A stretch of 64,000 nt of DNA from Candidatus Cybelea septentrionalis (lineage in GTDB: Bacteria > Vulcanimicrobiota > Vulcanimicrobiia > Vulcanimicrobiales > Vulcanimicrobiaceae), in contig PMHJ01000024.1 in NCBI GenBank assembly GCA_003158175.1, positions 82,443 through 146,442 on the forward strand, in the 5' to 3' direction. The position numbers and the translations under genes were made by a program. Below the pieces are notes generated by a model. That model was not told the DNA's origin, made no database searches, and saw only the letters and a program-made list of their open reading frames with translations. Below are positions 870-42,954 of the stretch, in pieces. How positions within the stretch are numbered: the stretch's first letter is position 1; each line of letters opens with the position of its first letter.

Positions 870-2459
870 ATGGCGGAACGAATACTGATTGCGGGCGGCG
901 GAACGATGGGTGCCGGCATCGCGTTCGTCGCCGCTAAGGCGGGCTACGAGGTCGAGATCGTCGAGCCGCAGGAGGCGGTCCGCGAGCGAGCGTTGCTCGA
1001 AATTGCGCGCCAGTCGGAGCGGTCGGGCGATCCTTCGATTGGACGACGCGTTGCTTTCACGAACGCCATCCCTCCTCGCAGCGACGCAATGCTTGCCATC
1101 GAAGCCGTCTCCGAACGTTTCGAAATCAAACGCGACGTTTTAGCGGCTTTGGCGGAGGCGCTACCGCCGGACGCACTGCTCGCGACCAACACTTCGTCGC
1201 TCTCCGTCGGCGAGCTAGCCGATGCCGTCACCCATCCGGAACGGGTCCTGGGACTGCACTTCTTCAATCCTCCGGTCCGAATGCAGCTCGTCGAAATCGT
1301 ACGCGCGCCGCAGACCGGCGACGATACGCTCGAGCGCGCGTTCGAGATCGTCGAGCGTTTGGGCAAGACCCCCGTGCTGGCCGCCGACACGCCCGGATTC
1401 ATCGTGAATCGGGTGGCGCGCCCGTACTATTTGCAGGCGTTGCGTGCACTCGAGCGGGGCGTGGCTTCCATGGAAGAGCTCGATGCGCTCGCCCGCGCAG
1501 CCGGTTTTCGAATGGGGCCGTTCGAGTTAATGGATCTCATCGGACTCGATGTGAATCTCGCAACGAGCGAATCAATCTACGAACGCACGCAGGCTCCGCG
1601 TTTCGAGCCGGCGGAACTTCAACGGGGCATGGTCGCCGAAGGTTTGCTGGGCCGAAAGAGCGGCGCCGGATTCTATTCGTATCGCGACGGCAAGGCCGAG
1701 AGGTTCGAACTTGACGTGCCCGCGCCGGCGGCGGAGCCGAACGACGAAGAGATCGTCGCCATCGTCGGCTTCGGTAATCGCGCGGACGAGCTGGCGGACA
1801 TGGTCGCGCAAGGTTACCGGAACGTGCTACGCATCGACAACGATGAGTTCATTGACGAGGTCTTGGCCGAGGCCACGATACTGATCGACGCGGGCGACGG
1901 AAGTTCCGATCGCGGCGACGCCATCGTTCGGCTCGAAGCGTCGCTCGAACCGGAATGCGTTATTTTTACCGATGCATACGCGACCAACGTTGCGGCGTGT
2001 GCGGCTCGATTGCGTCATCCGGAGCGGTTGGCCGGCTTCGGCGTGCTCGGTTCTTTGTCGGATGTGGATGCCGTGGAAATCGTCAACTCGCAGAATGCTT
2101 CGGACGACGCGCTCGAGCTGGCGCAGGAGCTCTTCGCAACTATCGGCATGGCCTCCGTGCTCGTTGAAGACGTTCCCGGACTCTTTCTTGGACGGACCAT
2201 CGGCTCGATCGTCAACGAGGCGATGATTGCGGTTGCCCAGGAGGTTGCCACGCCCGAAGATATTGACGAAGCAATGCACCTGGGGGCCAACTATCCCGTC
2301 GGTCCGATCGCGTGGGGGCGCGAAATCGGCGGTACGCGCCTGCGACGCATCTTGAAACGGCTGGCCGACGCCGAGGGCGATGACTTCGCGGCACATCGTT
2401 CGATCTGGCTCCTCGACATGGAAGAGTCGCCCGCGCCCGAGGAGAGTCTGCAGCAATGA
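870..2459 (+). CDS. 3-hydroxyacyl-CoA dehydrogenase (PaaH/FadB-like, two-domain)
   Basis: A 529-residue NAD-dependent 3-hydroxyacyl-CoA dehydrogenase. The Rossmann motif GGGTMGAGIA is at the N terminus, followed by the family signatures NTSSLS and LHFFNPP, the latter carrying the catalytic His. After the first C-terminal helical domain (about residues 185-275) there is a second Rossmann-like stretch and a second helical domain (about residues 400-500). That gives the long architecture of PaaH-type enzymes, roughly 500 residues against about 285 for Hbd. It would oxidise 3-hydroxyadipyl-CoA or a similar intermediate. Its stop overlaps the thiolase start by 4 bases, so the two are translationally coupled. 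Assignment to phenylacetate or benzoate degradation rests on the nearby PaaX and BoxB-like genes. Confidence 0.85.
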   Translation: MAERILIAGGGTMGAGIAFVAAKAGYEVEIVEPQEAVRERALLEIARQSERSGDPSIGRRVAFTNAIPPRSDAMLAIEAVSERFEIKRDVLAALAEALPPDALLATNTSSLSVGELADAVTHPERVLGLHFFNPPVRMQLVEIVRAPQTGDDTLERAFEIVERLGKTPVLAADTPGFIVNRVARPYYLQALRALERGVASMEELDALARAAGFRMGPFELMDLIGLDVNLATSESIYERTQAPRFEPAELQRGMVAEGLLGRKSGAGFYSYRDGKAERFELDVPAPAAEPNDEEIVAIVGFGNRADELADMVAQGYRNVLRIDNDEFIDEVLAEATILIDAGDGSSDRGDAIVRLEASLEPECVIFTDAYATNVAACAARLRHPERLAGFGVLGSLSDVDAVEIVNSQNASDDALELAQELFATIGMASVLVEDVPGLFLGRTIGSIVNEAMIAVAQEVATPEDIDEAMHLGANYPVGPIAWGREIGGTRLRRILKRLADAEGDDFAAHRSIWLLDMEESPAPEESLQQ

Positions 2460-3652
2460 GCCGCGACGTTTGGGTTGTCGATGCCGTGCGCACGCCGATC
2501 GGCCGCAATGGCGGCGCGTTGGCGACCGTTCGTCCTGACGACCTTGCTGCGATCGTGTTACGTGCGGTGGTCGAGCGTACCGGCATCGCGCCCTCGATCG
2601 TTGAGGACGTTTACTTCGGCGCCGCCAATCAGAGCGGCGAAGATAATCGAAACGTCGCACGCATGGCCGTGCTCTTAGCGAATCTGCCGCTTTGCGTACC
2701 CGGCGTTACCGTCAACCGCTTGTGCGGTTCGAGTCTTCAGGCGATCAATTCGGCCGCGCAAGCGATAGCCTTTGGAGAAGGTGACGTCATGATCGCCGGG
2801 GGTGTCGAGTCCATGACGCGCGCACCCTACATTTTGCCGAAGAGCGATGGGCCGTTCGGCCGAGGGCAGCGGCTCTTCGATACGGTTCTCGGCTGGCGCA
2901 TGGTTAATCCGAAGATGCCGCCCGAGCACACGGTTTCGCTCGGCGAGACGGCCGAGAACGTCGCGCGAGATTACGGCATCACGCGTGAAGAGCAAGACCG
3001 GTTTGCGTTCGAGTCTCAGATGAAGTGCAAGGCGGCAACCCAACGCAACGCATTCGCCGGCGAGTTGGTTGCCGTGCCGATTGAGGGCCCGTCACCCGCA
3101 ACCTCAGTGACGAGTGACGAACACCCGCGGCCGGAGACGACGTTGGAGCGCTTGGCGAAACTGCGGCCGGCTTTCAAGAACGACGGCACCGTGACGGCCG
3201 GCAACTCGTCGGGCATCAACGATGGCGCGGCGGCGCTACTGCTTTGCGAGGCGCAGACGGCGCGCCGCTTGGACCTGCGGCCGATAGCCCGGATCGTCGC
3301 ATGCGCCAGCGTGGGCGTTGCACCCGATGTGATGGGTCTCGGACCGATACCGGCGACGCGCAAGGCACTTGCGCGCGCGGGCTTAACCGTCGAGCAACTC
3401 GACCTGATCGAAATTAATGAAGCCTTCGCGTCGCAAGCCGTCGCGTGCATGGGTGAACTGAGGCTCGACCCGGCGAAAACGAACGTCAACGGCGGCGCGA
3501 TCGCGCTCGGACACCCGCTCGGAGCAAGCGGCGCGCGCATCGCGACGACGCTGCTGCACGAGATGGCTCGGCGAAAGGCGCGCTTCGGCCTGGCGACGAT
3601 GTGTATCGGCGTCGGTCAGGGTATCGCAACGGTATTCGAGCGCGTGGAGTAG
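2456..3652 (+). CDS. Acetyl-CoA C-acyltransferase (thiolase; PaaJ/PcaF-like)
   Basis: A 398-residue thiolase. The acyl-accepting Cys90 lies in NRLCGSS, the conserved His in GHPLGASG and the second Cys in MCIGVGQG, so the catalytic set is complete. In beta-oxidation-like breakdown of ring-cleavage products this step splits 3-oxoadipyl-CoA or another 3-oxoacyl-CoA into acetyl-CoA plus a shorter acyl-CoA. It overlaps the upstream dehydrogenase by ATGA and sits 12 bases before the aldehyde dehydrogenase, consistent with one operon. Whether the substrate is 3-oxoadipyl-CoA or a simple fatty acyl-CoA cannot be decided from sequence alone. Cytoplasmic. Confidence 0.88.
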   Translation: MSRDVWVVDAVRTPIGRNGGALATVRPDDLAAIVLRAVVERTGIAPSIVEDVYFGAANQSGEDNRNVARMAVLLANLPLCVPGVTVNRLCGSSLQAINSAAQAIAFGEGDVMIAGGVESMTRAPYILPKSDGPFGRGQRLFDTVLGWRMVNPKMPPEHTVSLGETAENVARDYGITREEQDRFAFESQMKCKAATQRNAFAGELVAVPIEGPSPATSVTSDEHPRPETTLERLAKLRPAFKNDGTVTAGNSSGINDGAAALLLCEAQTARRLDLRPIARIVACASVGVAPDVMGLGPIPATRKALARAGLTVEQLDLIEINEAFASQAVACMGELRLDPAKTNVNGGAIALGHPLGASGARIATTLLHEMARRKARFGLATMCIGVGQGIATVFERVE

Positions 3653-3664
3653 AAGGCGTTTACT

Positions 3665-5158
3665 ATGACGACTGCGCCAACTATGACCAAGACGCAACTG
3701 CTAATCGGCGGAGCATGGCGAGATGCTTCCGATGGCGGCACGTACGAAGTTCGCAATCCGGCCACGGGGGTGAAGATCGCCGACGTCGCGGAAGCGACGC
3801 GCGAGGATCTCAACGACGCGGTGAACGCGGCGCGGCGCGCATTCGATGCCGGCAAGTGGGCGTCGATGGCGGCCTCGCGACGCGCAAAGATCGTTTATAA
3901 GATAGCGCAGCTCATCGGCGAGCGCGCCGCCGACTTGGCGTTATGCGAGGTTCGCAACAACGGAAAAACCATCGGGACCGCTAAAGGCGAGCTCGGCGCG
4001 ATCGTGGATTGCTTTGAGTTTTATGCCGGTGCGGCCACGAAGAACTACGGCGAAACGTTGCCGCCGCCGCTGCCGTTCTATCTCGCCAATACCGTGCGCG
4101 AGCCGGTCGGCGTTGTCGGTGCGATCGTTCCGTGGAACTTTCCGCTGCTGCTGGCTTCGTGGAAGGTTGCACCGGCGCTCGCCGCAGGCTGCACGATCGT
4201 GCTCAAGCCGGCGCACGCTACGCCCCTGACGGCGATCGAGTTGGGCAAGATCGCACTCGAAGCGGGCGTGCCCGAAGGCGTTCTCAACGTCGTCACCGGT
4301 TCGAAAGGCGGCCTCGGAGGGTGGCTCGTCGATCATCCAGCCGTCGATAAGATCGCGTTTACCGGTTCGACGGACACCGGACGTATCGTCGCTGCGGCCG
4401 CAGCGCGCACGCTCAAGCGCGTAACGTTGGAACTCGGCGGGAAATCGCCGTCCGTCGTTTTTGACGATGCCGATGTCGACGCCGCCGTAGCGGGTGCGCT
4501 GTACGGCGTCTACTATAATGCGGGCCAATGCTGCGAGGCGCGCTCGCGCATTCTGCTGCAGTCCGGAGTTTACGACCGTTTCGTCGAACGATTCGCCCAG
4601 AAAGCGCAGCTCCTGCGCGTCGGCGACCCGGAAGATCCGCAGACCCAGATCGGAGCGATTACAACGTCCGAGCAGTTCGAGAAGATTCGCTCGTATTGCG
4701 AGGTCGGCGCGGCCGAAGGCGCCCAGATGCTTTTCGGCGGCACCTCGCCCGAGCTCGGCCAGAGCTTCGCATCGGGAATGTTCTGGAATCCGACCGCCTA
4801 CGAAGCGAAGAGCGGTCACCGGATCGTCCGCGAGGAGATCTTCGGCCCGGTCGCCGTCTTGGTACGGTTCGACGACGAAGCTGAAGCGATCGCGTTGGCA
4901 AACGACAGCGAGTTCGGCCTCGCCGCCAGCGTCTGGAGCTCGAATATCGGGCGCGCGAATCGCGTCGCCCGAGCGATCCGAAGCGGCTCGGTTGCGATCA
5001 ACACGCCATACTCGGTCTTTCCCGGCGTTCCGTTTGGCGGATTTAAGGCATCCGGGTACGGACGCGAGCTAGGCATGGAAACGATGCGGCTTTACAGCGA
5101 AACCAAGAGCGTCCTCACCTATATTGGGGAGAAACCGATGGACCCGTTTCGGGTATAG
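3665..5158 (+). CDS. NAD(P)-dependent aldehyde dehydrogenase
   Basis: A 497-residue member of the aldehyde dehydrogenase superfamily at full length. Visible motifs are the PWNFPLLL cofactor-site segment, FTGSTDTGR, the catalytic Glu in LELGGKSP and the nucleophile in NAGQCCEA (Cys289/Cys290, the second being the usual catalytic position). The closest style is betaine/phenylacetaldehyde dehydrogenase rather than the two-domain PaaZ. In this operon it may oxidise an open-chain semialdehyde (the BoxD role) or an aryl aldehyde that feeds the pathway; neither is proven. An alternative ATG lies six codons downstream of the chosen start. A small unknown gene follows 8 bases later. Confidence 0.88.
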   Translation: MTTAPTMTKTQLLIGGAWRDASDGGTYEVRNPATGVKIADVAEATREDLNDAVNAARRAFDAGKWASMAASRRAKIVYKIAQLIGERAADLALCEVRNNGKTIGTAKGELGAIVDCFEFYAGAATKNYGETLPPPLPFYLANTVREPVGVVGAIVPWNFPLLLASWKVAPALAAGCTIVLKPAHATPLTAIELGKIALEAGVPEGVLNVVTGSKGGLGGWLVDHPAVDKIAFTGSTDTGRIVAAAAARTLKRVTLELGGKSPSVVFDDADVDAAVAGALYGVYYNAGQCCEARSRILLQSGVYDRFVERFAQKAQLLRVGDPEDPQTQIGAITTSEQFEKIRSYCEVGAAEGAQMLFGGTSPELGQSFASGMFWNPTAYEAKSGHRIVREEIFGPVAVLVRFDDEAEAIALANDSEFGLAASVWSSNIGRANRVARAIRSGSVAINTPYSVFPGVPFGGFKASGYGRELGMETMRLYSETKSVLTYIGEKPMDPFRV

Positions 5159-5166
5159 CCTGGCGT

Positions 5167-5493
5167 ATGGTGGAAACGCTCAAGATCGGCCGGCGCTACG
5201 GCACCAGCTACGGCACGCTGTGGAAGGACGGAACCTATTTTCCCCGGGGTACCGAGGTGACGGTCGTTGGGGTGCATCTGGACCAAGGATTCTGCGTGCG
5301 CTTTCCCGCGACGGAGGACGGCGAACCGCTCGAAACCTGGGAAGACTGGAGCGAAGTGGATTTCCTGGCCGAGCCGGGCTCGGTCGAACCTCCACCCCGG
5401 CCACTTTCACGAGCCGTGCTTGCCGAAGCGCGCGACGTGCTCTCGGAGGCGGAAGACGGATCTCATCTTCACTTAGATGAGGACGAAGCCTAA
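5167..5493 (+). CDS. Hypothetical protein, acidic C terminus
   Basis: A 108-residue protein with no recognised family. Residues 1-65 look like a small beta-rich fold (RRYGTSYGTL, TEVTVVGVHLDQGF), and the last 40 residues are helical and acidic, ending DEDEA. It follows the aldehyde dehydrogenase by 8 bases and is probably the last gene of that operon. Its TAA stop lies inside the left arm of the inverted-repeat element, so the element insertion may have set its C terminus. Confidence 0.6.
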   Translation: MVETLKIGRRYGTSYGTLWKDGTYFPRGTEVTVVGVHLDQGFCVRFPATEDGEPLETWEDWSEVDFLAEPGSVEPPPRPLSRAVLAEARDVLSEAEDGSHLHLDEDEA

Positions 5494-5626
5494 GGCTCCT
5501 GATTTAGCCTAGCTCTTCGTTGGCTCGGGGTTCATTTACCATAGTAAACTTCACCCCTCGCCGATGCCTGTCCGGAGCGAGCGCAGCGAGTCGAAGGATG
5601 ATCTAGGCTAAATCAGGAGCCTTAGG
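5489..5626. repeat. 138-bp inverted-repeat element with 24-bp perfect arms
   Basis: Arm 5489-5512 and arm 5603-5626 are perfect reverse complements over 24 bases and stop matching on both sides. Each arm begins CCTAAGG and thereby supplies the TAA stop of a convergent gene: 5491-5493 for the plus gene and 5624-5622 for the minus gene. The 90-base centre contains a small hairpin (TTTAC CATA GTAAA) and a stretch reading GCGAGCGCAGCGAGTCGAAGG, similar to the intergenic repeat near 9.4 kb. It encodes no protein. It could be a non-autonomous, MITE- or REP-like element or a bidirectional terminator. No flanking target duplication is evident. Confidence 0.85.
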
Positions 5627-6011
5627 TTCCGAGGCTGATGAGGGTGGTCTGCCATATTTCCCAGTCGGCACATTCAAACGACTTGCCCGTGGGCAGAATG
5701 GCTACCCAGCAGTAGGTTTTAGCCGGCTTGAGGCCGGTGAACTTCACCTTGCCGTTGTGGTTGGTAGAGAGCGTTTCAAAGGGTGTTCCCGGACGAGGGC
5801 TCGACGTCGACTTTGGCGTCGATTCCTGGACGGGAATCTTCGGCTTAGGCAAGCCATTGATCGTGACTAAGACGTGCGCAGCGGTGATGGACGGATCGGG
5901 CGAGGGCGAGCCGGGCGTAAATGACGGGGTGGGAGTCGTAGAGCTGCTGCTATGGCAAGCGGCGACCGCCAGCGCGGCGACGCAGAGAACGATCATCAGG
6001 CGTTTCGGCAT
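5622..6011 (-). CDS. Putative lipoprotein, Pro/Ser/Thr-rich linker
   Basis: A 129-residue protein. It has a signal peptide ending in a lipobox (LAVAAC, acylated Cys near residue 19), a linker rich in Ser, Thr and Pro (residues about 20-45), and a C-terminal beta-rich region (HVLVTINGLP through TYCWVAILPTG) that looks like a small Ig- or fibronectin-like domain. It probably sits in the inner or outer membrane facing the periplasm. Its start overlaps the 3' end of the PaaX gene by 16 bases, so it may be cotranscribed with the repressor, although no functional link is evident. Its stop lies inside the inverted-repeat arm. Confidence 0.65.
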   Translation of the reverse strand: MPKRLMIVLCVAALAVAACHSSSSTTPTPSFTPGSPSPDPSITAAHVLVTINGLPKPKIPVQESTPKSTSSPRPGTPFETLSTNHNGKVKFTGLKPAKTYCWVAILPTGKSFECADWEIWQTTLISLGT

Positions 6012-6874
6012 GGGCGGCTCGCTTCGACGCTTTTATGCTCGCCCCCGTTCGTAAGGCGCGAGCAAAGATGAAAGTAACGTTGTGATTTTTTTTCGAGCGC
6101 GGCATAGTATTCGCGAAAGAGCGCCGCCGCCGCGGTCCCCGGCCAATGAGCCGGCAGCAGTTCGCTGGGCAGACCCGGGTCGAGATAGGCAAACTTCCGG
6201 TAATCGTGGACGAGCCAGAGGCGCTCGACGAACGCGCCTTCGTCACTGAGCTCGCCTCGGGCGATTTCAAGGTCGAAACGTGGCCGGTAACGGGAGACGA
6301 ACTCCCGATATGCCGCCGCAATTGAGTCGACGTTCCAGCAACGCTCGAGGAGCGCGCGATCGCTGCGCGGCCCGCGGTACTCGGCCTCGAAGAGATCGGT
6401 CGCACTTAAGGCCACGGTTGCTTCGGCCGCTTGGCGAGCGGCTTCGAGCGCATTCGAGGGCGAGATCCAGGTGGACGACGAGAGTTGCGCCCAGCCGAGC
6501 GCGGCGAGCTCCTTTCGAAGACGTTCTCGCCCTTGACGCTGCGCCTCCCCGACTGCGTAGGTGAGCAAACGCCAGCGACCGTCCCACTCGATGACGGGTC
6601 CGTAGATGCGGGGGCTCAGTTCCTCTATCCGGCGGCGTCCACGGGCGGTTACCATATAGAAGGCGCGATTACCGTCGCGGCGAGCGGTAAGCCATCCTTG
6701 GCGACTCATGCGCGAGACGGCCTGGCGGACGGCCTGCGACGACACGCCGAACGCAGCCATCAGGCGGATTAGTCCGCCGATCCAAAGCGCTCCGTCGCCC
6801 GCGAGGCGATGTACCATATCGCCGTAAAGTGTAAATATAAACGAGTTGGGCCGAGTAACCGGGCGGTGGTCCAA
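5996..6874 (-). CDS. paaX: PaaX-family transcriptional repressor
   Basis: A 292-residue regulator of the PaaX family. The N-terminal winged helix (about residues 10-85: SFIFTLYGDMVHR, SSQAVRQAVSRMSRQGWL) is followed by the PaaX ligand-binding and C-terminal domains. In characterised bacteria PaaX represses aerobic phenylacetate genes and is released by phenylacetyl-CoA. The start is a TTG at 6874 preceded by a good ribosome-binding site (AGGAGGTG, five bases upstream); no better ATG exists. The divergent oxygenase promoter begins two bases away, so binding by this protein would block both directions. The effector (phenylacetyl-CoA, benzoyl-CoA or another aryl-CoA) is not determined. Confidence 0.85.
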   Translation of the reverse strand: MDHRPVTRPNSFIFTLYGDMVHRLAGDGALWIGGLIRLMAAFGVSSQAVRQAVSRMSRQGWLTARRDGNRAFYMVTARGRRRIEELSPRIYGPVIEWDGRWRLLTYAVGEAQRQGRERLRKELAALGWAQLSSSTWISPSNALEAARQAAEATVALSATDLFEAEYRGPRSDRALLERCWNVDSIAAAYREFVSRYRPRFDLEIARGELSDEGAFVERLWLVHDYRKFAYLDPGLPSELLPAHWPGTAAAALFREYYAALEKKSQRYFHLCSRLTNGGEHKSVEASRPCRNA

Positions 6875-6875
6875 C

Positions 6876-6905
6876 TTGACACCTCCTGGGCTTAGGACCT
6901 AGTAT
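6876..6905 (+). promoter_or_regulatory. Sigma70-type promoter of the BoxB-like operon, with possible operator
   Basis: TTGACA at 6876-6881 and TAGTAT at 6900-6905 are separated by 18 bases, an almost ideal housekeeping promoter. The spacer ends with an odd palindrome TAGGACCTA (6893-6901) that overlaps the first bases of the -10 box and is a candidate repressor site. The -10 hexamer overlaps the ATG at 6904, so that ATG cannot be the translation start of the transcript made here. Confidence 0.7.
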
Positions 6906-6960
6906 GACGGTATTCTCGCCGTTTGAGAAAATTCCGTTATATGAGCTTGAGGGGCTGCCG

Positions 6961-8082
6961 ATGAACCGAATCGCGACGTTTGACGACTGGATCACGATGC
7001 TGGACGAATGGAGGCGCGATGTCGGGCTCGATCGTGAGCTGGTGGATCGCTTCATGCCGGGCTACATCTTCGAAGCAAAGTATGGCGAGCTGCCAACCCC
7101 GGAAATCTACTTTGGGGACTTCAAGGGCGACCGCCGTTGGGAGCGCGTTCGTGAGATCCCCGATCAGCGCATGAAGGACGCCGTCCTCAACATGGTCGTC
7201 TATCAAGGTGACACCGAGTTTGCCTCCAACGAGCAGCAGCGATTCCTGGTCAACAATGCGCCGAGTGAGTATGATCTGGCATCGCTGGTTCGGATCATGG
7301 TCGAAGAGACGCGTCACGGCTATCAGATGTGTCATCTGATGGTCGAGCACTTTGGCAGCGAAGGGAAGATCGAAGCGCAGAAAATGCTCGAGCGCCGCGC
7401 TTTCGGCAAGAAGAACCGTTTGCTCAACGCTTTCAACGAAGACGTGACGCATTGGATGGACTTCTTTGCATACACGAACTTCATGGATCGCGACGGCAAG
7501 TTTCAGCTGAGCATGCTCTCTCACTCCAGCTTTGCTCCGCTCGCGGCCTCCATGGGACCGATGCTTCGCGAAGAGGCCTTTCACATGGGAACCGGCATTA
7601 CGGGGCTGCGTCGCATCGCGAAGGCGGGCGTCATTCCCGTCGAGATTCAGCAAAAATACTACAACAAGTGGATCTCGGGCTCGCTCGATCTCTTCGGAAC
7701 CGATCACTCGGGCTCGGCGCAATGGGCCTACACCTGGGGAATCAAAGGGCGCGTCGACGAGGATAAAGCCGGTGACGGCGCCGACAAGGAGCATCTCAAC
7801 GAGCGCGCGCGCGGACAGTTCCACGAGGAAATCTCGGCCACGGTCGCCCGCGTGAACGAGGTCAACTCGAGCGAGACGAAGTTCTACGTTCCCGAGATGA
7901 GCTTCAACCGCAAGATCGGCGATTACGGCGGAGAACGCTACACTGTCGACGGCCGCAAACTTACCGAGGAAGAGTGGGTAGCCTATGCTCCCACGGTGCT
8001 GCCGACCGCTGACGACGAAGCGAAACTTAAAGAGTACTTCAAAGAACCCCACTGGATCGCCCCCAAAGGAAAACTTTCATGA
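6961..8082 (+). CDS. BoxB-like diiron oxygenase (benzoyl-CoA 2,3-epoxidase family)
   Basis: A 373-residue member of the PaaA/BoxB ferritin-like diiron family. The pattern QGDTE-x-AS-x-EQQR, then E-x-x-H, then FMDRDGKFQL, then EEAFH is that of BoxB. Candidate iron ligands are Glu86, Glu116, His119, Asp176, Glu205 and His208, with spacing very close to characterised BoxB. BoxB epoxidises the ring of benzoyl-CoA with O2 and electrons from BoxA. This protein is about 100 residues shorter than typical BoxB (about 470). The frame extends up to 6904, but that ATG lies in the -10 box; ATG 6961 has GAGGGG upstream and is preferred. It overlaps the hydratase by ATGA. No reductase is in the window. The true substrate could be another aryl-CoA. 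Confidence 0.8.
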   Translation: MNRIATFDDWITMLDEWRRDVGLDRELVDRFMPGYIFEAKYGELPTPEIYFGDFKGDRRWERVREIPDQRMKDAVLNMVVYQGDTEFASNEQQRFLVNNAPSEYDLASLVRIMVEETRHGYQMCHLMVEHFGSEGKIEAQKMLERRAFGKKNRLLNAFNEDVTHWMDFFAYTNFMDRDGKFQLSMLSHSSFAPLAASMGPMLREEAFHMGTGITGLRRIAKAGVIPVEIQQKYYNKWISGSLDLFGTDHSGSAQWAYTWGIKGRVDEDKAGDGADKEHLNERARGQFHEEISATVARVNEVNSSETKFYVPEMSFNRKIGDYGGERYTVDGRKLTEEEWVAYAPTVLPTADDEAKLKEYFKEPHWIAPKGKLS

Positions 8083-8936
8083 GCACCACAATTGACGGCG
8101 CGACAAAACAGACTCCGTTTGGTCGCGAGCAGCGCGCGCTCGACGGAAAGCGCGTCATTAACTACTGGAAAGATGGTCACGTCGGATTCATCGAGATGGA
8201 CGATCCGCCGGCCAACACCTATACGCACGAGATGATGCGGCAACTCGACGAAGCGATTCTCGACGCGCGGTTCGACTCCGACGTCGAGGTCATCGTGCTT
8301 ACCGGCAAGGGCGAAAAGTTCTTTTCGGCCGGGGCCAATATCGGGATGCTCAACCAGGTGACGCCTGAGTTCAAGTACATGTTCTGCCTGCACGCAAATG
8401 AGACGCTGGCGCGGCTCGAGCAAACGTCGAAGCTTGTGATCGCCGCTCTCAACGGGCATTGCGTCGGCGGCGGCCTGGAGATCGCGATGGCGGCAGACCT
8501 GCGCATCGCCCGGAAGGACGCCGGAAAGATCGGTCTTCCCGAAGTCGCGCTCGGAGTTCTGCCGGGAACCGGTGGAACCCAGCGCTTAGCGCGCCTCGTT
8601 GGCAAATCGCGCGCGATCGAGATGATGGTGACGGGCAAGACGGTCAGTTTCGAGCAGGCGATGGAGTGGGGCATGCTCACCGATCTGTTCGAAGGGAATG
8701 CGAGCGAGTTCCGCGAGCAGATCACGGATTACGCCAAACAGTTCTGCTCGCCGAACAAGGCGCCGATGGCCGTCGGCAACATAAAACGCAGTGTCCAGAC
8801 GGGAGCCGAGCTTCCGCTGCAAGACGCGCTTGCGCTCGAACGCGAACTGCAGTCGCTGCTCTTCAAGAGCGAGGATGCGAAAGAAGGGCTCGCGGCTTAT
8901 AACGAAAAGCGTGTCGCCCGCTTCAAGAACAAATAG
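8079..8936 (+). CDS. Enoyl-CoA hydratase/isomerase (crotonase family)
   Basis: A 285-residue crotonase-fold protein. The oxyanion-hole segments are KFFSAGANIGML and NGHCVGGGLEIA, and the catalytic-Glu region is LPEVALGVLPGTGGTQRL. Family members hydrate or isomerise enoyl-CoAs. Coupled by ATGA to the BoxB-like gene, it may act on the epoxide, the dihydrodiol or a ring-opened enoyl-CoA, the place filled by PaaG/PaaF in the paa pathway. It is much shorter than BoxC (about 550 residues), which performs the equivalent ring cleavage in the box pathway. The exact reaction is not determinable from sequence. Confidence 0.87.
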   Translation: MSTTIDGATKQTPFGREQRALDGKRVINYWKDGHVGFIEMDDPPANTYTHEMMRQLDEAILDARFDSDVEVIVLTGKGEKFFSAGANIGMLNQVTPEFKYMFCLHANETLARLEQTSKLVIAALNGHCVGGGLEIAMAADLRIARKDAGKIGLPEVALGVLPGTGGTQRLARLVGKSRAIEMMVTGKTVSFEQAMEWGMLTDLFEGNASEFREQITDYAKQFCSPNKAPMAVGNIKRSVQTGAELPLQDALALERELQSLLFKSEDAKEGLAAYNEKRVARFKNK

Positions 8937-8939
8937 AAG

Positions 8940-9101
8940 ATGAAAAGCTCGTGTCAGGGGTGTGGGCGGAACATTCAAACCGGCGCCGAGGCGCGCGCGT
9001 GCTCCTACGACTGCACCTTTTGTACGGCCTGCGCGGCTGCAATGAACGACCGCTGCCCGAACTGCGGTGGCGCGCTCGAGACCGTAAGCGAGGTTGCCTG
9101 A
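8940..9101 (+). CDS. DUF1272 small zinc-binding protein
   Basis: A 53-residue, cysteine-rich product. Its eight cysteines are arranged C-x2-C (5, 8), C-x3-C-x2-C-x2-C (21, 25, 28, 31) and C-x2-C (39, 42), ending CPNCGG. This matches the DUF1272 family, short proteins that probably bind two zinc ions and have no known function. The ATG lies three bases after the hydratase stop, and the stop overlaps the next gene by 8 bases, so it is embedded in the oxygenase operon. An assembly, redox-sensing or metal-handling role for the oxygenase is conjecture. Confidence 0.85.
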   Translation: MKSSCQGCGRNIQTGAEARACSYDCTFCTACAAAMNDRCPNCGGALETVSEVA

Positions 9102-9378
9102 AGTGGTAGCTGCGTTCATTCTGATGGAGGTCGAAAGGCCGAGGTTGCGCTCGATCGCCGACGATCTGCTGGCGATCGATGGTATCGCCGAAGTCTATTC
9201 CGTCGCGGGCCCGTACGACATGATCGCGATCGTGCGCGTGAAGCAGCATGAAGAGCTCAACGATCTCGTTACGGAACGGGTCGCCGCACTCGACGGTATC
9301 CTCAGCACCGAGACGCTGATCGCCTTTCGTTCGTTCTCGAAGAAAGATTTGGGCCTTCTCTGGGACATCGGCGAGTAG
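9094..9378 (+). CDS. Stand-alone Lrp/AsnC ligand-binding (RAM) domain protein
   Basis: A 94-residue protein consisting only of the alpha-beta RAM domain of Lrp/AsnC regulators (VVAAFILMEVE, IAEVYSVAGPYDMIAIVRV, DGILSTETLIAF), with no helix-turn-helix. Stand-alone RAM proteins oligomerise and bind amino acids or related small molecules, and may modulate partner regulators or enzymes. The start is TTG 9094, overlapping the DUF1272 stop; GTG 9103 is an alternative. As the last gene of the oxygenase operon it may sense a pathway compound, which is inference. Confidence 0.8.
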   Translation: MPEVVAAFILMEVERPRLRSIADDLLAIDGIAEVYSVAGPYDMIAIVRVKQHEELNDLVTERVAALDGILSTETLIAFRSFSKKDLGLLWDIGE

Positions 9379-35612: not shown

Positions 35613-36593
35613 ATGCCGTTGTGGCTTGAGGTCCTCATTAAATCGGTGATCCTGCTCTTCGTCGTCGTGACTTCGTTTGCGTACGCGATGCTGGCCGAAC
35701 GCAAGATTTTGGGATGGATGCAGCTACGCCCCGGGCCGAATCGCGTCGGTCCTTGGGGGCTCCTGCAGCCCGCCGCCGATGCCGCCAAGCTTATGCTCAA
35801 GGAAGACTTGACGCCGGAAACGGCCGATCCACTCCTCTATAAGCTTGCGCCCTTCATTTCGCTGCTGACGGCATTTTCGGTCTATGCAATCATTCCGTTT
35901 GGCGCGTCGGCATCGGGGCAAACCTGGGCGATCGGCAACGTCAACGCCGGAATTCTGCTGATTCTGGCGATCGGTTCGTTGGGCGTGTACGGAATTTGCT
36001 TAGGCGGCTGGGCATCGGGATCGAAGTATCCGCTGCTGGGCAGCGTGCGTTCGACGGCGCAGATGATCAGTTACGAGCTCGCCATGTCGCTGTCGTTCGT
36101 AGGCGTCCTGATTCTCGCCGGCACCACTTCACTCGACGGCATCGTCAACGCGCAGGCGCGCTGGTGGTTCGTACTTCCGCAGTTCGTCGGTTGTATGATC
36201 TACGTGATCACGGCCGTCGCGGAGACGAATCGGGCGCCGTTCGATCTGGTCGAGGCGGAGACCGAGCTGGTGGCAGGCTTCCACACCGAGTACTCGGGTT
36301 TGCGTTTTGGTTTGTTTTTCATCGCCGAGTACGTCAACATGCTCACGGTGTCGTGCATCGCGACGCTGCTCTTCTTCGGTGGATGGAACGCGCCGCTGCA
36401 CCTGACGTTTATTCCCGGCGTCGCCTGGTTCGTCATCAAGGTTGCGTGCTTTATGTTCTTTTATATGTGGTTGCGTGCGACGCTGCCGCGGCTTCGATAC
36501 GATCGCCTGATGGCTTTTGGATGGAAGATTCTGCTGCCGCTGGCGACGCTCAACCTCGTGGTCACGGCAATCGTCGTGGCGTATACGGGTTAG
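35613..36593 (+). CDS. nuoH: NADH-quinone oxidoreductase subunit H
   Basis: A 326-residue membrane subunit with eight helices. The first conserved loop is LAERKILGWMQLRPGPNRVG and the quinone-channel loop is ETNRAPFDLVEAETELVAGF, both hallmarks of NuoH. It anchors the hydrophilic arm and forms the quinone entry channel and the first proton-path residues. It begins directly after the nuoG stop, without a gap, and ends 7 bases before nuoI. Confidence 0.96.
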   Translation: MPLWLEVLIKSVILLFVVVTSFAYAMLAERKILGWMQLRPGPNRVGPWGLLQPAADAAKLMLKEDLTPETADPLLYKLAPFISLLTAFSVYAIIPFGASASGQTWAIGNVNAGILLILAIGSLGVYGICLGGWASGSKYPLLGSVRSTAQMISYELAMSLSFVGVLILAGTTSLDGIVNAQARWWFVLPQFVGCMIYVITAVAETNRAPFDLVEAETELVAGFHTEYSGLRFGLFFIAEYVNMLTVSCIATLLFFGGWNAPLHLTFIPGVAWFVIKVACFMFFYMWLRATLPRLRYDRLMAFGWKILLPLATLNLVVTAIVVAYTG

Positions 36594-36600
36594 GCGATCC

Positions 36601-37227
36601 ATGGCTTCACGCAAGCATCTCTATAACCCCGGCGCGATCCTGAAGGGGCTCTCGATTACCTTCGGGTTCATGTTTCGGAAGCGCCCGACGATCCCGTATC
36701 CATCGCTTAAGAAACAGCACTCGCCGCGCTTTCACGGGCTACACGAGTTGCGCCGCTACGCCGACGGCAAAGAGCGGTGCATTGGGTGCGAGCTCTGCTC
36801 GAGCGTTTGCCCGGCCAACGCCATCACCGTGATCGGGGCGGAAAACTCGCCGGACGATCGCCGGTCGCCGGGTGAGCGCTACGCCGCGCGCTATGAGATC
36901 GACGAGCTTCGCTGCATCTTTTGCGGAATGTGTGAAGAGGCGTGCCCCACCGATGCGATCGTGCTCACGCCGCGCTTCGAAATGGCCGACTATCGCCGGG
37001 GTTCGTTTATCTACGATAAGGACCGGCTGCTCGTGCCGCCCGACGCCGGCGTCGGCATGCCTCCCGACGACCGGCCCGGTGGAATCCCCGGCGATCTCGG
37101 CCGCGTCGCCGAGATCAAATCGACGACCGATGTCGATACCGGCTACAGCGCAACCTGGCGAGGGGAGATCCTCAAGACCCAGCACGAGGGGCTGGCTATC
37201 CTCAAGAAACCCGAGGCACAGGAATGA
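36601..37227 (+). CDS. nuoI: NADH-quinone oxidoreductase subunit I
   Basis: A 208-residue ferredoxin-like subunit with two [4Fe-4S] clusters, N6a and N6b, bound by CIGCELCSSVCPANAI and CIFCGMCEEACPTDAI. The N-terminal amphipathic helix (LKGLSITFGFMFRK) lies on the membrane. The C-terminal 60 residues after the second cluster are longer than in short NuoI forms. ATG 36601 is chosen because homology starts there, although the frame is open upstream inside nuoH. Its stop overlaps nuoJ by ATGA. Confidence 0.95.
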   Translation: MASRKHLYNPGAILKGLSITFGFMFRKRPTIPYPSLKKQHSPRFHGLHELRRYADGKERCIGCELCSSVCPANAITVIGAENSPDDRRSPGERYAARYEIDELRCIFCGMCEEACPTDAIVLTPRFEMADYRRGSFIYDKDRLLVPPDAGVGMPPDDRPGGIPGDLGRVAEIKSTTDVDTGYSATWRGEILKTQHEGLAILKKPEAQE

Positions 37228-37811
37228 TCGCATTTTGGGTGCTTGCGGCGATGCTGATTGCCAGCGCCGTGTGGACGATCGTGGCGAAGAAGCCCGTCTA
37301 CAGCGTCGTCGCCCTGTTGCTCAACTTTGCCACGCTCGCGGTTCTGTACGTTACGCTCTCGGCCGAGTTTCTGGCGGTCATCCAAATCATCGTCTACTCT
37401 GGCGCGATCCTCGTGCTCTTCGTCTTCGTGATCGCGCTCTTGGGCAGCGGGGTCGCCCCCTTTCCCACCGGCCCGAATCGCTTGCCGAAGATCTGGCTGC
37501 CTGCCGGGCTCTTCACGCTTGCGGCGTTCGGATTCCTCATCTATGCCGTCTCGAACGTCAAGATGGCCGCGGCGCCGGCAACCGGCGCGGTTGGAAATGC
37601 GAACGTTTTCGGCAGCGTCGCCGACTTTGGTAAAGCGCTCTTTACGGTGCAACTGCTTCCCTTCGAAGCGACGGGACTCGTCTTGATGGTGGCCGTAATC
37701 GGCGTCATCACTTTGGGCGGCGAACAGATGAGCGACGCCGAGGCGCAGCAGAGCCGCATGCGGGCGGATCGCGCGGTGCGCGAGGCGATCTTGCGCGAAG
37801 GCAAGGGCTGA
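37224..37811 (+). CDS. nuoJ: NADH-quinone oxidoreductase subunit J
   Basis: A 195-residue membrane subunit with five helices (first at residues 2-20). The segment AEFLAVIQIIVYSGAILVLF contains the pi-bulge region typical of NuoJ helix 3. The C-terminal 35 residues are charged and cytoplasmic. It takes part in coupling quinone reduction to proton pumping. It overlaps nuoI by four bases and nuoK by one. Confidence 0.93.
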   Translation: MIAFWVLAAMLIASAVWTIVAKKPVYSVVALLLNFATLAVLYVTLSAEFLAVIQIIVYSGAILVLFVFVIALLGSGVAPFPTGPNRLPKIWLPAGLFTLAAFGFLIYAVSNVKMAAAPATGAVGNANVFGSVADFGKALFTVQLLPFEATGLVLMVAVIGVITLGGEQMSDAEAQQSRMRADRAVREAILREGKG

Positions 37812-38116
37812 TGAGCGTTCCGATCAACGACTACGTGACCCTCGCTTCCGTCATTTTTTTCATCGGCGTCGTCGGCGTGATCGTTCGGCGCAATCCGCTC
37901 ATTATGCTGATGAGCGTCGAACTGATGTTCAACGCCGCAAACCTGCTCCTGATCGCCTACGCCCGCCTCTGGCTCCATAACGTCGGCCACATCTTTGCGT
38001 TCATCGTGATTACCGTTGCCGCCGCGGAGGCCGCGATTGGCCTCGCGATCGTGGTGACGACGTTCCGCCCCGAAAAGTACGTCGACGTCGACGATATTCG
38101 GAGGCTGCATGGGTGA
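37811..38116 (+). CDS. nuoK: NADH-quinone oxidoreductase subunit K
   Basis: A 101-residue three-helix membrane subunit related to MrpC. The conserved glutamates of the proton path are in helix 2 (LMSVELMFNAANL) and helix 3 (AAAEAAIGLAIV). The size is exactly typical. Its end overlaps the nuoL start by 8 bases. Confidence 0.94.
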   Translation: MSVPINDYVTLASVIFFIGVVGVIVRRNPLIMLMSVELMFNAANLLLIAYARLWLHNVGHIFAFIVITVAAAEAAIGLAIVVTTFRPEKYVDVDDIRRLHG

Positions 38117-40061
38117 TGTCGGCATGACGCATCACGTGCTCGGCGTCGCAGGCTCGTACCCGATGTTGCTGGCGTTGTGGCTGCTGCCTTTGGCGGGCGC
38201 GGTTATTTGTTGGGCGTTTGGGCCGCAGTTGCGCGCGATGGCCGGATGGCTTGTATCGGCGCTGGTCGGGGCATCGTTCGTACTGGCCGTGCTTTCGTGG
38301 CACGACGGCACGCAGAGCGTCGCGGGAGCCTCCGGCGCCAATCAGCCGCTCTTTTCCTGGATGCCTGGATTTGATTTTGGGCTCTTGCTCGATCCGCTCT
38401 CGCTGCTGTGGACCTTCATCATTACCGGCGTCGGGTTCTTAATCGTCTTCTATTCGATCGGGTACATGCAAGGCGATCGCGCATTCGCGCGATTCTTCGC
38501 CTACATGAGCTTCTTCGTTTTTGCGATGCTGACGCTCGTGCTCTCCGACAACTTCATAGGCCTGCTCGTCGGGTGGGGCCTGGTCGGCTTGGCGTCATAT
38601 TTTCTCATCGGCTTCTGGTTCGAGCGGCCCTCCGCCGTCGCCGCTGCGCGCAAAGCGTTCGTCATCAACGTGGTCGGAGACGTCGGTGTGATGTTTGCGA
38701 TCTTCGTGATCGTGGCCCACGTGCACTCGATCGGCTTCGGCGATACCTTTGCGGCTACGGGAACGTTGAGCGCGGCGGTCGTCCTTACGATTTGCATTGC
38801 ACTCTTCATCGGCGCAGCCGCCAAGTCGGCACAGGTGCCGTTGCACACTTGGCTGCCCGATGCGATGGAGGGGCCGACACCCGTTTCGGCCTTGATTCAC
38901 GCTGCCACCATGGTGACGGCGGGCGTCTATCTCATCGCACGCTGCGCGCCGCTGTGGAACGCGAGTCACGAAGCGCAACTAGTGGTTGGGACGGTCGGCG
39001 GACTGACGGCGCTGCTCGGAGCGATTCTCGGGACCGCGCAATGGGACATCAAACGGATCCTCGCCTATTCGACGATGTCGCAAATCGGCTACATGATCAT
39101 GGGCGTCGGGACCGGTGCCTACGAGGCCGGCATCGCACAGTTCTTTACCCACGCGTTCTTTAAGGCTCAACTCTTTTTAGGTGCCGGTTTGGTGATCCAC
39201 GCGCTCTCCGACGAGCAAGATATTCGCCGCATGGGCGGGCTCTGGAAGAAGATGCCGTTTGCGTTTTGGGTGATGCTGACCGGCGTGCTCTCGATCACCG
39301 GAGTTCCCGGTTTCTCGGGGTTCTTCTCGAAGGATGAGGTCATTTACGGTGCGCTGCAGCACGGGCATCCGTGGCTCGACGCAATCGGCATCGTGACGGC
39401 CGGCATTACCGCTTACTACATGTTCCGCCTGCTCTTCGTCGCGTTCTTGGGCGAATACCGCGGCGAGGCGCCCGTGCACACGGGCGGCGCCGGGTCCTGG
39501 ATCATGAACGTGCCGGTAGCGATCTTGGTCGTTCCAAGCGTCGCGATCGGCGGCGCATTGCTTTTTGGCGGCGACGCATCGCCGTGGGCGCACTTTTTTG
39601 CACCGCTCTTCGCGGCGCAGGCGCATCTGGCAGCGGCGCAAACTCCGGCACCGGCGATCTCCGAGAACCTCACCTCGGTGATCGTGGTGATCGTCGTGGC
39701 GATTGGTTTTGCCATCGCCTGGCAGCGCTACGCCACTGCGACCGCGCAACGCAATGCGGTCGATCGGCTTCGCACAGAGGCCGAGAGGATGCCGGCGGTT
39801 CTCACGAACCTCTTTTATTTTGACGCCGCGATCGATGCGATCTTCGTACGCCCGTCGCAAGCCTTGGGACGATTTTTTGGGCACGTGTTCGATCCCCGCA
39901 TACTCGACGGCGCCGTTCGCGAGATCGTCGTGACCGTTGGCGGCCTCGGAACGCTCGTACGCTCGCTGCAGACCGGCCTCTTGCGCGCGTACGCGTTGAT
40001 TTTGGTTTTCGGAGCGGCCTGCTTCATCGCATACTATGCCATCGCCGGAGCCGCACACTGA
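38109..40061 (+). CDS. nuoL: NADH-quinone oxidoreductase subunit L (antiporter-like)
   Basis: A 650-residue distal proton-pumping subunit with about 16 helices and a long C-terminal lateral helix. Conserved Mrp-antiporter segments are VGLASYFLIGFW, SAQVPLHTWLPDAMEGPTPV with SALIHAATMVTAGVYL, the lysine region QWDIKRILAYSTMSQIGYM and HAFFKAQLFLGAG. ATG 38109 lies inside the nuoK end; a second ATG five codons on is possible. nuoM follows with a one-base overlap. Confidence 0.95.
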   Translation: MGDVGMTHHVLGVAGSYPMLLALWLLPLAGAVICWAFGPQLRAMAGWLVSALVGASFVLAVLSWHDGTQSVAGASGANQPLFSWMPGFDFGLLLDPLSLLWTFIITGVGFLIVFYSIGYMQGDRAFARFFAYMSFFVFAMLTLVLSDNFIGLLVGWGLVGLASYFLIGFWFERPSAVAAARKAFVINVVGDVGVMFAIFVIVAHVHSIGFGDTFAATGTLSAAVVLTICIALFIGAAAKSAQVPLHTWLPDAMEGPTPVSALIHAATMVTAGVYLIARCAPLWNASHEAQLVVGTVGGLTALLGAILGTAQWDIKRILAYSTMSQIGYMIMGVGTGAYEAGIAQFFTHAFFKAQLFLGAGLVIHALSDEQDIRRMGGLWKKMPFAFWVMLTGVLSITGVPGFSGFFSKDEVIYGALQHGHPWLDAIGIVTAGITAYYMFRLLFVAFLGEYRGEAPVHTGGAGSWIMNVPVAILVVPSVAIGGALLFGGDASPWAHFFAPLFAAQAHLAAAQTPAPAISENLTSVIVVIVVAIGFAIAWQRYATATAQRNAVDRLRTEAERMPAVLTNLFYFDAAIDAIFVRPSQALGRFFGHVFDPRILDGAVREIVVTVGGLGTLVRSLQTGLLRAYALILVFGAACFIAYYAIAGAAH

Positions 40062-42897: not shown

Positions 42898-42932
42898 CGC
42901 CCGCGTCACGCCGCCGGGCGGCCGTGCGCTAT
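42894..42932 (+). terminator. Hairpin after nuoN, possible attenuating terminator
   Basis: ATAGCGC (42894-42900, covering the nuoN stop codon) pairs with GCGCTAT (42926-42932), with an inner GCCG/CGGC pair. No run of T follows, and the ribosome-binding site of the TPR gene begins 6 bases later, so it may stabilise the nuo mRNA or reduce read-through rather than terminate fully. Confidence 0.35.
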
Positions 42933-42954
42933 AGCTCTCGAAGGGGTGCCTACA

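What the first reader, a model, noticed from the sequence alone, without database searches (positions are those of the whole stretch)
5996..9378. Hybrid aromatic-CoA cluster: PaaX regulation of a short BoxB-like oxygenase
The regulator is of the paa (phenylacetyl-CoA) type, yet the oxygenase has the ligand pattern of BoxB (Glu86, Glu116, His119, Asp176, Glu205, His208, spacing as in benzoyl-CoA epoxidase), is about 100 residues shorter than BoxB, and pairs with a simple crotonase instead of BoxC. PaaB-E, BoxA and BoxC are absent from the window. The divergent-side genes (HADH, thiolase, ALDH) could complete beta-oxidation. This may be a distinct, smaller aerobic aryl-CoA epoxidation pathway with an unknown substrate and reductase.
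Basis: partly seen in the sequence, partly recalled or inferred. Interest (0 to 1): 0.72.

Follow-up and report, generated by a model that had tools for sequence, protein, structure and literature searches.

The report
Compact benzoyl-CoA ring-opening gene cluster
A bacterial gene pair looks like a pared-down version of the known oxygen-using enzymes that open the ring of benzoate-type compounds; relatives of the pair occur in several groups of uncultured bacteria and in ocean archaea, so a small and so far undistinguished route for breaking down aromatic compounds may be widespread.

Summary
Window 6961-8082 encodes a 373-aa diiron oxygenase (OXY) with all six BoxB iron ligands; a 100/100 branch separates it from canonical BoxB, about 100 residues longer, the difference spread over six segments. 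Its partner crotonase (ECH, 8079-8936) carries the active-site signature of the catalytic half of BoxC, although by overall score it is nearer ordinary enoyl-CoA hydratases. The own genome has a single PaaA/PaaC/BoxB-family match (OXY) and no BoxA over the cut-off. OXY with ECH recurs in Eremiobacterota, Acidobacteria, Gemmatimonadota, one Planctomycetota locus and marine archaea; 67 of 80 loci carry beta-oxidation or aldehyde dehydrogenase partners. Neighbours hint at benzoyl-CoA: 4-hydroxybenzoyl-CoA reductase (7 of 11 Acidobacteria loci) and a benzoate-CoA ligase (one Eremiobacterota locus). In the window a PaaX-type repressor has one dedicated operator (6903-6941) over the OXY promoter. 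Best reading: a compact, second-type box pathway. Catalysis and substrate are inferred; the electron donor is unknown; neither the own genome nor the archaea tested have a benzoate-CoA ligase over the cut-off. MG-II 'boxB' transcripts are in print; my searches found no paper that sets this family apart. New variant of a known kind.

The parts
870..2459 (+). HADH: 529-aa 3-hydroxyacyl-CoA dehydrogenase with two matched stretches of each domain, PaaH-like
   Evidence: Pfam 3HCDH_N/3HCDH; TIGR02279 PaaH 358.6 bits, below cut-off 669.4; present in 16 of 19 same-family short-form loci (recount)
2456..3652 (+). THL: thiolase, nearest 3-oxoadipyl-CoA thiolase (PcaF/PaaJ-like)
   Evidence: TIGR02430 549 bits against cut-off 597; NF006551 554.5 against 605; in 16 of 19 same-family loci
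3665..5158 (+). ALDH: aldehyde dehydrogenase, candidate for the BoxD/PaaZ-ALDH step
   Evidence: Pfam Aldedh 564 bits; none of the best 25 NCBIfam models over cut-off; 27.6% identical to a 275-residue stretch of E. coli PaaZ; in 16 of 19 same-family loci
5167..5493 (+). ORF108: conserved small protein after ALDH, function unknown
   Evidence: no Pfam hit; in 16 of 19 same-family loci
5622..6011 (-). 129-aa lipoprotein-like protein following paaX, overlapping its end
   Evidence: ORF, no Pfam hit; relatives in 10 of 19 same-family loci
5996..6874 (-). PaaX-type repressor, divergent from OXY
   Evidence: three PaaX Pfam domains over gathering; TIGR02277 249.3 bits, just below cut-off 264.55
6876..6905 (+). 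sigma-70-like promoter of the OXY-ECH unit: TTGACA 6876-6881, TAGTAT 6900-6905, spacer 18
   Evidence: read by eye from the sequence; a similar layout is seen in upstream sequences of relatives printed, not counted
6903..6941 (+). inverted-repeat operator TATRACGNTATTC-N18-CCGTYATA overlapping the -10 box
   Evidence: 0 mismatches here; at up to 3 mismatches chance mean 0.02 in the window; besides this site (both strands) one 3-mismatch site in the genome; at up to 4 mismatches in 46 of 62 sequences with adjacent divergent PaaX, the window among them, and 0 of 14 without
6961..8082 (+). OXY: 373-aa short BoxB-type diiron oxygenase, predicted aryl-CoA (benzoyl-CoA) epoxidase; the ORF as called starts at 6904
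8079..8936 (+). ECH: single-domain crotonase with the signature of the catalytic N-terminal half of BoxC; Cys103, Glu134, Glu155 match BoxC Cys111, Glu146, Glu168
8940..9101 (+). 53-aa Cys-rich protein, DUF1272
   Evidence: PF06906 56.7 bits; relatives in 2 of 19 same-family loci and 1 of 80 loci
9094..9378 (+). 94-aa stand-alone Lrp/AsnC ligand-binding domain
   Evidence: PF01037 59 bits; relatives in 10 of 19 same-family loci, from next to ECH to about 6 kb away

Best explanation
A compact, second-type box pathway. OXY uses O2 at a BoxB-like diiron site to epoxidise the ring of benzoyl-CoA (or a close analogue); ECH, a one-domain BoxC relative, hydrolyses the epoxide and opens the ring, giving (by analogy with BoxC) 3,4-dehydroadipyl-CoA semialdehyde and formate; ALDH oxidises the aldehyde; an isomerase and a hydratase (beside OXY in other phyla, not in the window cluster), HADH and the 3-oxoadipyl-CoA-type thiolase finish by beta-oxidation to acetyl-CoA and succinyl-CoA. 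No BoxA was found, so electrons probably come from a general ferredoxin or flavin reductase. In the window PaaX sits on an operator over the OXY -10 box and represses OXY-ECH until an aryl-CoA releases it. Shown by computation: gene content, ligands, predicted fold, family split, conserved linkage, conserved operator-like repeat. Inferred: every catalytic step, the substrate, the electron donor, PaaX binding and its effector.
For: Iron ligands identical in 38 of 38 short forms; the BoxB substrate-contact residues Gln116, Thr119, Ser123 and Phe193 are kept in 38 of 38, while E. coli PaaA has His, Ser, Gly, Phe. Predicted fold: best PDB match BoxB with benzoyl-CoA, TMq 0.85, E 4.8e-19; PaaA only about 5e-4. 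ECH: motif FC-(3 or 4)-NET in 17 of 19 ECH, 10 of 10 BoxC N-halves, 0 of 27 other crotonases; PDB 2ppy, which has the motif, is the best hit of ECH and the best hit after BoxC of BoxC-N. ECH at 50% identity or more lies in 59 of 80 loci, within 300 bp on the same strand in 36. Gemmatimonadota loci L104 and L131 carry ECH, ALDH, THL, PaaG-like, OXY, PaaH and PaaF together; 67 of 80 loci have at least one such partner. Acidobacteria: HcrA 1027-1042 bits over the equivalog cut-off 994.55 in 4 of 4 copies tested, found in 7 of 11 Acidobacteria loci. L046 (G076): benzoate-CoA ligase family over cut-off next to ECH. HcrA-like genes of 780 bits or more (a line drawn by me after seeing the list) in 28 of 86 short-form genomes, 3 of 6 third-type, 0 of 12 with canonical BoxB only; Fisher p 1.5e-5 for short form against the rest, uncorrected for kinship. 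Operator.
Against: No activity data. TIGR03225 222 bits, far below its 499.1 cut-off. BoxB Thr210 is Met/Val/Ile in 38 of 38 and Phe206 is Tyr in 33 of 38, so the pocket differs. By overall score ECH is nearer ordinary hydratases than BoxC: E. coli PaaF 144 bits against BoxC 96, BoxC 43rd of 158 PDB sequences; the tree does not resolve its sister. The own genome has no benzoate-CoA ligase over cut-off (best 361 against 375) and no HcrA-like match above 418 bits; 0 of 14 archaeal genomes have the ligase over cut-off. Four genomes hold both canonical BoxB and the short form, which argues for divided roles. 21 of 80 loci show no ECH at 50% in the DNA held. No PaaE-like and only one BoxA-like stretch near OXY in 80 loci. 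Isomerase and hydratase were not located for the window genome.
Confidence: 0.57

Rival explanations
1. OXY is a stand-alone epoxidase for another ring carboxyl-CoA (a substituted or heterocyclic benzoyl-CoA analogue), with canonical BoxB handling benzoyl-CoA where both occur.
For: Pocket changes at BoxB Phe206 and Thr210; four genomes with both types; no ligase over cut-off and no high-scoring Hcr in the own genome.
Against: Four of the contact residues are unchanged in all 38; HcrA, whose product is benzoyl-CoA itself (recalled), is adjacent in Acidobacteria.
Confidence: 0.2
2. OXY is a one-component phenylacetyl-CoA epoxidase, as the PaaX-type regulator and the PaaH/PaaJ/PaaF/PaaG-like partners could suggest; in archaea phenylacetyl-CoA could come from phenylalanine without a ligase. 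ECH would then be an ordinary hydratase or isomerase.
For: PaaX family regulator in Eremiobacterota; lower-pathway genes shared with paa; archaea lack a benzoate-CoA ligase over cut-off; ECH overall score nearer PaaF than BoxC.
Against: TIGR02156 PaaA 35 bits against cut-off 280; a single PF05138 match in 26 of 32 genomes, so no PaaC seen there; PaaK over cut-off in 1 of 35; PaaA contact residues not shared; among the 80 loci PaaX relatives occur in 11, all from L075-L088, while other bacterial loci often have TetR-type regulators.
Confidence: 0.14
3. The module is biosynthetic or protective (for example a hydroxylation on a CoA thioester) rather than a catabolic ring opening.
For: High conservation; short form in 86 of 149 genomes of the phylum and in small-genome marine archaea.
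Against: Frequent company of ALDH, thiolase and beta-oxidation enzymes, a dedicated operator-like repeat under PaaX and aromatic-acid feeder genes in some loci.
Confidence: 0.05

Closest known systems
BoxAB benzoyl-CoA 2,3-epoxidase, BoxB component (Azoarcus evansii, PDB 3pm5/3per)
   Same: Predicted fold, six diiron ligands, most substrate-contact residues, action expected without a PaaC-like subunit
   Different: 373 instead of 475 aa; about 39% identity in the full alignment, 44-47% over the core to BoxB of the same phylum; below the BoxB equivalog cut-off; no BoxA found; Thr210 and Phe206 replaced
[quoted passage not shown]
   Same: FC...NET motif, Cys and two Glu of the N-terminal active domain
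   Different: One crotonase domain instead of two; 33% identity to the N-half, and overall score below that of ordinary hydratases
PaaABCE phenylacetyl-CoA 1,2-epoxidase and the paa catabolon
   Same: PaaX-family regulator; PaaH-, PaaJ-, PaaF- and PaaG-like partners here or in related loci
   Different: No PaaB/C/D/E or PaaK found; PaaA similarity only at superfamily level
Marine Group II 'benzoyl-CoA oxygenase (boxB)' transcripts (PMC5069720, passage seen)
   Same: Probably archaeal members of this family, judged by host and annotation only
   Different: Named in the passage only as boxB among highly expressed genes; not described there as short or paired with a one-domain BoxC

Membership tests
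BoxB (TIGR03225) | Score over the curated equivalog cut-off (499.1 bits) | tested here: not met
   222.3 bits; L104 relative 239.7; canonical L032 893.5 and L052 780.3
BoxB | Six diiron ligands E,E,H,D,E,H | tested here: met
   38 of 38 short forms, the window among them
BoxB | BoxB fold | tested here: met
   AlphaFold2 pLDDT 84.5; Foldseek ranks 1-11 are all BoxB; a predicted model
BoxB | Full length near 475 aa and placement in the BoxB clade | tested here: not met
   373 aa; split 100/100; missing segments of 19, 24, 19, 23, 7 and 13 residues
BoxB | BoxA reductase partner | tested here: not met
   0 of 149 phylum genomes over cut-off; 0 of 33 in a second set, four of them also in the first, with the control record at 682 bits; most are incomplete assemblies
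BoxB | Benzoyl-CoA epoxidase activity | not testable with these tools
   needs enzyme assay
BoxC | Active-site Cys and two Glu of the N-domain | tested here: met
   Cys103, Glu134, Glu155; the role of the two Glu in BoxC from PMC4498308 passages, that of the Cys recalled
BoxC | Two crotonase domains | tested here: not met
   ECH is 285 aa with one ECH_1 stretch
PaaA / PaaABCE | TIGR02156 over cut-off and a PaaC partner | tested here: not met
   35.4 against 280 bits; single PF05138 match in own genome
PaaX | PaaX N, central and C domains | tested here: met
   all three over gathering
PaaX | Equivalog TIGR02277 cut-off | tested here: not met
   249.3 against 264.55 bits
PaaX | Phenylacetyl-CoA as effector | not testable with these tools
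   needs binding assay

The most novel reading that the evidence does not exclude
A second, minimal box pathway for benzoyl-CoA, with a short BoxB, a half-size BoxC and no BoxA, that opens aromatic rings with O2 in several uncultured bacterial phyla and in Marine Group II archaea; in some Acidobacteria it couples 4-hydroxybenzoyl-CoA reductase, an enzyme known from anaerobes (recalled), to oxygen-dependent ring opening.
Probability: 0.4. Interest if true: 0.75.

Novelty: new variant of a known kind. Interest (0 to 1): 0.6.

Why it matters
If right, aerobic CoA-dependent ring opening is more widespread than paa and canonical box counts suggest, and reaches marine archaea and uncultured phyla. 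Searches based on BoxA or on equivalog cut-offs would miss it. It also gives a two-gene minimal system for asking what BoxB and BoxC really need, and poses a clear open question: which electron donor replaces BoxA.

Tried and rejected
Idea that OXY is a truncated or decaying BoxB: rejected, because 86 of 149 genomes of the phylum carry the short form by my sorting, 18 of them (own included) 85-100% identical to the window protein, relatives reach other phyla and archaea, and the missing residues are spread over six segments.

Idea that PaaA/PaaC or BoxA lie elsewhere in the genome: not supported. (BoxA as one protein) is a weak negative alone; the family model with a control record that scored 682 bits is the stronger test. 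The genome is 94% complete, so a missed gene is possible.

A GDPD-like protein between OXY and PaaH in Gemmatimonadota, considered as a reductase, is a glycerophosphodiesterase by Pfam. An archaeal flavoprotein near OXY in L137, considered as BoxA, is CysJ-like; similar partial BoxA-model matches (45-83 bits) lie in other archaeal genomes, in several of them on the OXY contig about 14-16 kb away. I fetched three such stretches but did not analyse them, so they are not excluded as donors.

The own-genome ligase (361 bits) first looked like part of an anthraniloyl-CoA cluster; its 860-aa neighbour is a mannosyltransferase, so no claim is made.

ECH as sister of BoxC-N: the tree leaves ECH, BoxC-N and the other crotonases as a three-way fork once BoxC-C is the outgroup, with long branches; overall scores favour ordinary hydratases (PaaF 144 against BoxC 96 bits; BoxC 43rd of 158 PDB sequences). 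The claim rests on the motif and on 2ppy as shared best PDB hit. Proteins more than 48% identical to the window ECH were removed from the 'other' set before counting.

The tree with PaaA as outgroup had end branches of length 10 and was not used for rooting; the clean split is from the tree of short forms and BoxB alone. With the third group added, the free tree does not keep the short forms as one group, but a tree that does was not rejected (p-AU 0.94).

A search for the family in Geobacillus (organism of PDB 2ppy, recalled) could not be made with these tools.

Paper searches listed no paper that by title, abstract or the passages I opened describes a short BoxB family; only some of the listed papers were opened, as passages, none as a whole, and the library holds open-licence papers only.
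Full report
WHAT IS THERE. The region holds a divergent pair: a PaaX-type repressor (5996-6874, -) and an OXY-ECH unit (6961-8936, +), followed by a DUF1272 mini-protein and a stand-alone AsnC ligand domain. Upstream on the + strand lie HADH, a 3-oxoadipyl-CoA-type thiolase, ALDH and a small conserved ORF. The genome is a 3.19-Mb assembly, 94% complete; the closest named record is Candidatus Eremiobacterota (L075, 97% identical OXY).

OXY. The first 19 codons of the called ORF lie over the promoter and operator; relatives start at Met20. The protein scores 222 bits on BoxB and 35 on PaaA, both below their cut-offs. BoxB, short forms and a third group share all six iron ligands. An AlphaFold2 model (pLDDT 84.5, pTM 0.87) matches BoxB best: 3pm5 with benzoyl-CoA, TMq 0.85, E 4.8e-19; the Sulfolobus protein 4mud follows at 5e-6 and PaaA at 5e-4. 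In a maximum-likelihood tree 38 short forms and 10 BoxB are separated by a 100/100 branch. With five third-type proteins added, the free quick tree does not keep the short forms together, but a tree that does has the higher likelihood and is not rejected (p-AU 0.94). Relative to BoxB six segments of 19, 24, 19, 23, 7 and 13 residues are missing, so this looks like loop and end trimming and not the loss of a domain.

POCKET. From passages of PMC5489048 the residues near the benzoyl group in BoxB are Gln116, Thr119, Ser123, Phe193, Phe203 (Phe206 in another passage) and Thr210. In 38 short forms Gln, Thr, Ser and Phe193 are invariant and Phe203 is kept in 33; Phe206 is Tyr in 33; Thr210 is Met, Val or Ile in all 38. 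The set is BoxB-like and unlike E. coli PaaA, with a change next to the ligand Asp.

ECH. By BLAST ECH is 33% identical both to E. coli PaaF (144 bits) and to BoxC (96 bits), and BoxC is only 43rd of 158 PDB sequences; on overall score it is an ordinary-looking crotonase. But it carries the BoxC N-half signature: F.AGA.I..L in 18 of 19 ECH and 9 of 10 BoxC-N, 0 of 27 other crotonases; FC followed after 3 or 4 residues by NET in 17 of 19, 10 of 10 and 0 of 27. Cys103, Glu134 and Glu155 match BoxC Cys111, Glu146 and Glu168. PMC4498308 (passages) says that only the N-terminal domain of BoxC has an active centre, with two Glu, and that BoxC co-purifies with BoxB and relieves its product inhibition; a one-domain BoxC beside a short BoxB fits this. 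PDB 2ppy, which has the motif, is the best hit of ECH (242 bits) and the best hit of BoxC-N after BoxC itself (84.5 bits against 67.8 for the next). The tree does not resolve which group is ECH's sister.

DISTRIBUTION. In 149 genomes of the phylum 105 have a match; by my sorting 86 have the short form, 16 canonical BoxB (four have both), 6 a third type and 1 a weak match. ECH at 50% identity or more is in 59 of the 80, on the same strand within 300 bp in 36 and within 3 kb in 44. Several of these loci are the same contigs as loci in L035-L074.

PATHWAY. Gemmatimonadota loci L104 and L131 hold ECH, ALDH, THL, a PaaG-like protein, OXY, PaaH and PaaF in one run; L108 and L110 lack only the PaaF hit. 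In 67 of 80 loci at least one such partner is a best hit. In 19 same-family loci ECH is in 19, HADH, THL, ALDH and PaaX in 16 each. Neighbours picked by me were named by family scans. The set can carry a ring-opened C6 semialdehyde to acetyl- and succinyl-CoA (established box/paa chemistry, as in PMC4498308 passages); for the window genome the isomerase and hydratase were not located.

SUBSTRATE CLUES. HcrA of 4-hydroxybenzoyl-CoA reductase is over its equivalog cut-off (994.55) in L100 1038.9, L102 1029, L105 1042.1 and L154 1027; hcrA relatives lie in 7 of 11 Acidobacteria-titled loci and 0 of the other 69; HcrB of L102 scores 340.9, below 404.55. In the phylum no HcrA-like protein passes the cut-off (0 of 149), but 31 genomes score 780-879 bits, a line drawn by me at a gap in the list: 28 of 86 short-form genomes, 3 of 6 third-type and 0 of 12 with BoxB only. 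G076 has a benzoate-CoA ligase family protein over cut-off beside ECH. Against this: the own genome has no ligase over cut-off and no HcrA-like match above 418 bits; 9 of 15 other bacterial and 0 of 14 archaeal genomes have the ligase over cut-off. PaaK is over cut-off in 1 of 35 genomes, and the own genome has no PaaK match at E 0.001. Of 32 genomes 26 have a single PF05138 match; G076, G150, G152 and G176 also have a better-scoring PaaA/PaaC-type match.

ELECTRON DONOR. BoxA is over cut-off in 0 of 149 phylum genomes and 0 of 33 in a second set with a control record at 682 bits. This includes the canonical BoxB genomes of the phylum, so a different donor may serve both types there. PaaE- or BoxA-like stretches near OXY are absent in 79 of 80 loci; the one hit is CysJ-like. 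Partial BoxA-model matches elsewhere in archaeal genomes were not followed up.

REGULATION. A TTGACA-18-TAGTAT promoter (6876-6905) is overlapped by an inverted repeat TATGACGG...CCGTTATA (6903-6941). With up to 3 mismatches the pattern is found only at this site in the window, on both strands (0 and 2 mismatches), chance mean 0.02; the genome has one further site with 3 mismatches. With up to 4 mismatches it lies upstream of OXY in 46 of 62 sequences that have PaaX within 400 bp (the window among them; some loci are copies of one contig) and in 0 of 14 others. The 16 without it are 10 loci of the f3 class or kin at about 60% OXY identity and L014, L025, L046, L058, L068 and L080. So PaaX here appears to serve this operon alone; binding is not shown.

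PRIOR WORK. PMC5069720 (passage) lists MG-II 'benzoyl-CoA oxygenase (boxB)' among highly expressed genes in the Red Sea. PMC13186573 (passages) surveys paa genes and does not contain the word BoxB. PMC10803450 (abstract and passages) says the box pathway has been tested experimentally in Alpha- and Betaproteobacteria. A paper on aerobic benzoate use in Bacillus stearothermophilus was seen only as a reference entry. The searches named in Tried and rejected showed no description of the short family.

Noticed in passing
L107, L112-L114, L117-L128, L130, L132-L152 (just downstream of OXY): A conserved protein of about 180 aa lies next to OXY in 38 archaeal loci; the one member scanned at default limits has no Pfam or NCBIfam match and two others only sub-threshold Pfam hits; an all-helical model (pLDDT 85.2) has no PDB match at E 0.001. 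Possible archaeal partner of OXY.
   Followed up: partly
L052, L053, L056, L064-L066, L176-L178: Canonical boxB-boxC clusters of this phylum (boxR in all nine, bclA in eight) go with no BoxA over cut-off anywhere in 149 genomes, so BoxB itself may use another donor there.
   Followed up: partly
L054, L055, L173-L175: A third, deeply separate BoxB-like group (open frames 413-499 aa) with all six ligands and a different pocket (Asn at the Phe203 site in 5 of 5); neighbours not examined.
   Followed up: no
L102:15034-16023, L104:12681-13583, L131:11718-12686: Amidohydrolase-2 family proteins recur in OXY clusters of Acidobacteria and Gemmatimonadota; role unknown.
   Followed up: no
window 36001-44000: Strong AT skew of about -0.21 over 8 kb, against -0.11 to 0.09 elsewhere.
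   Followed up: no
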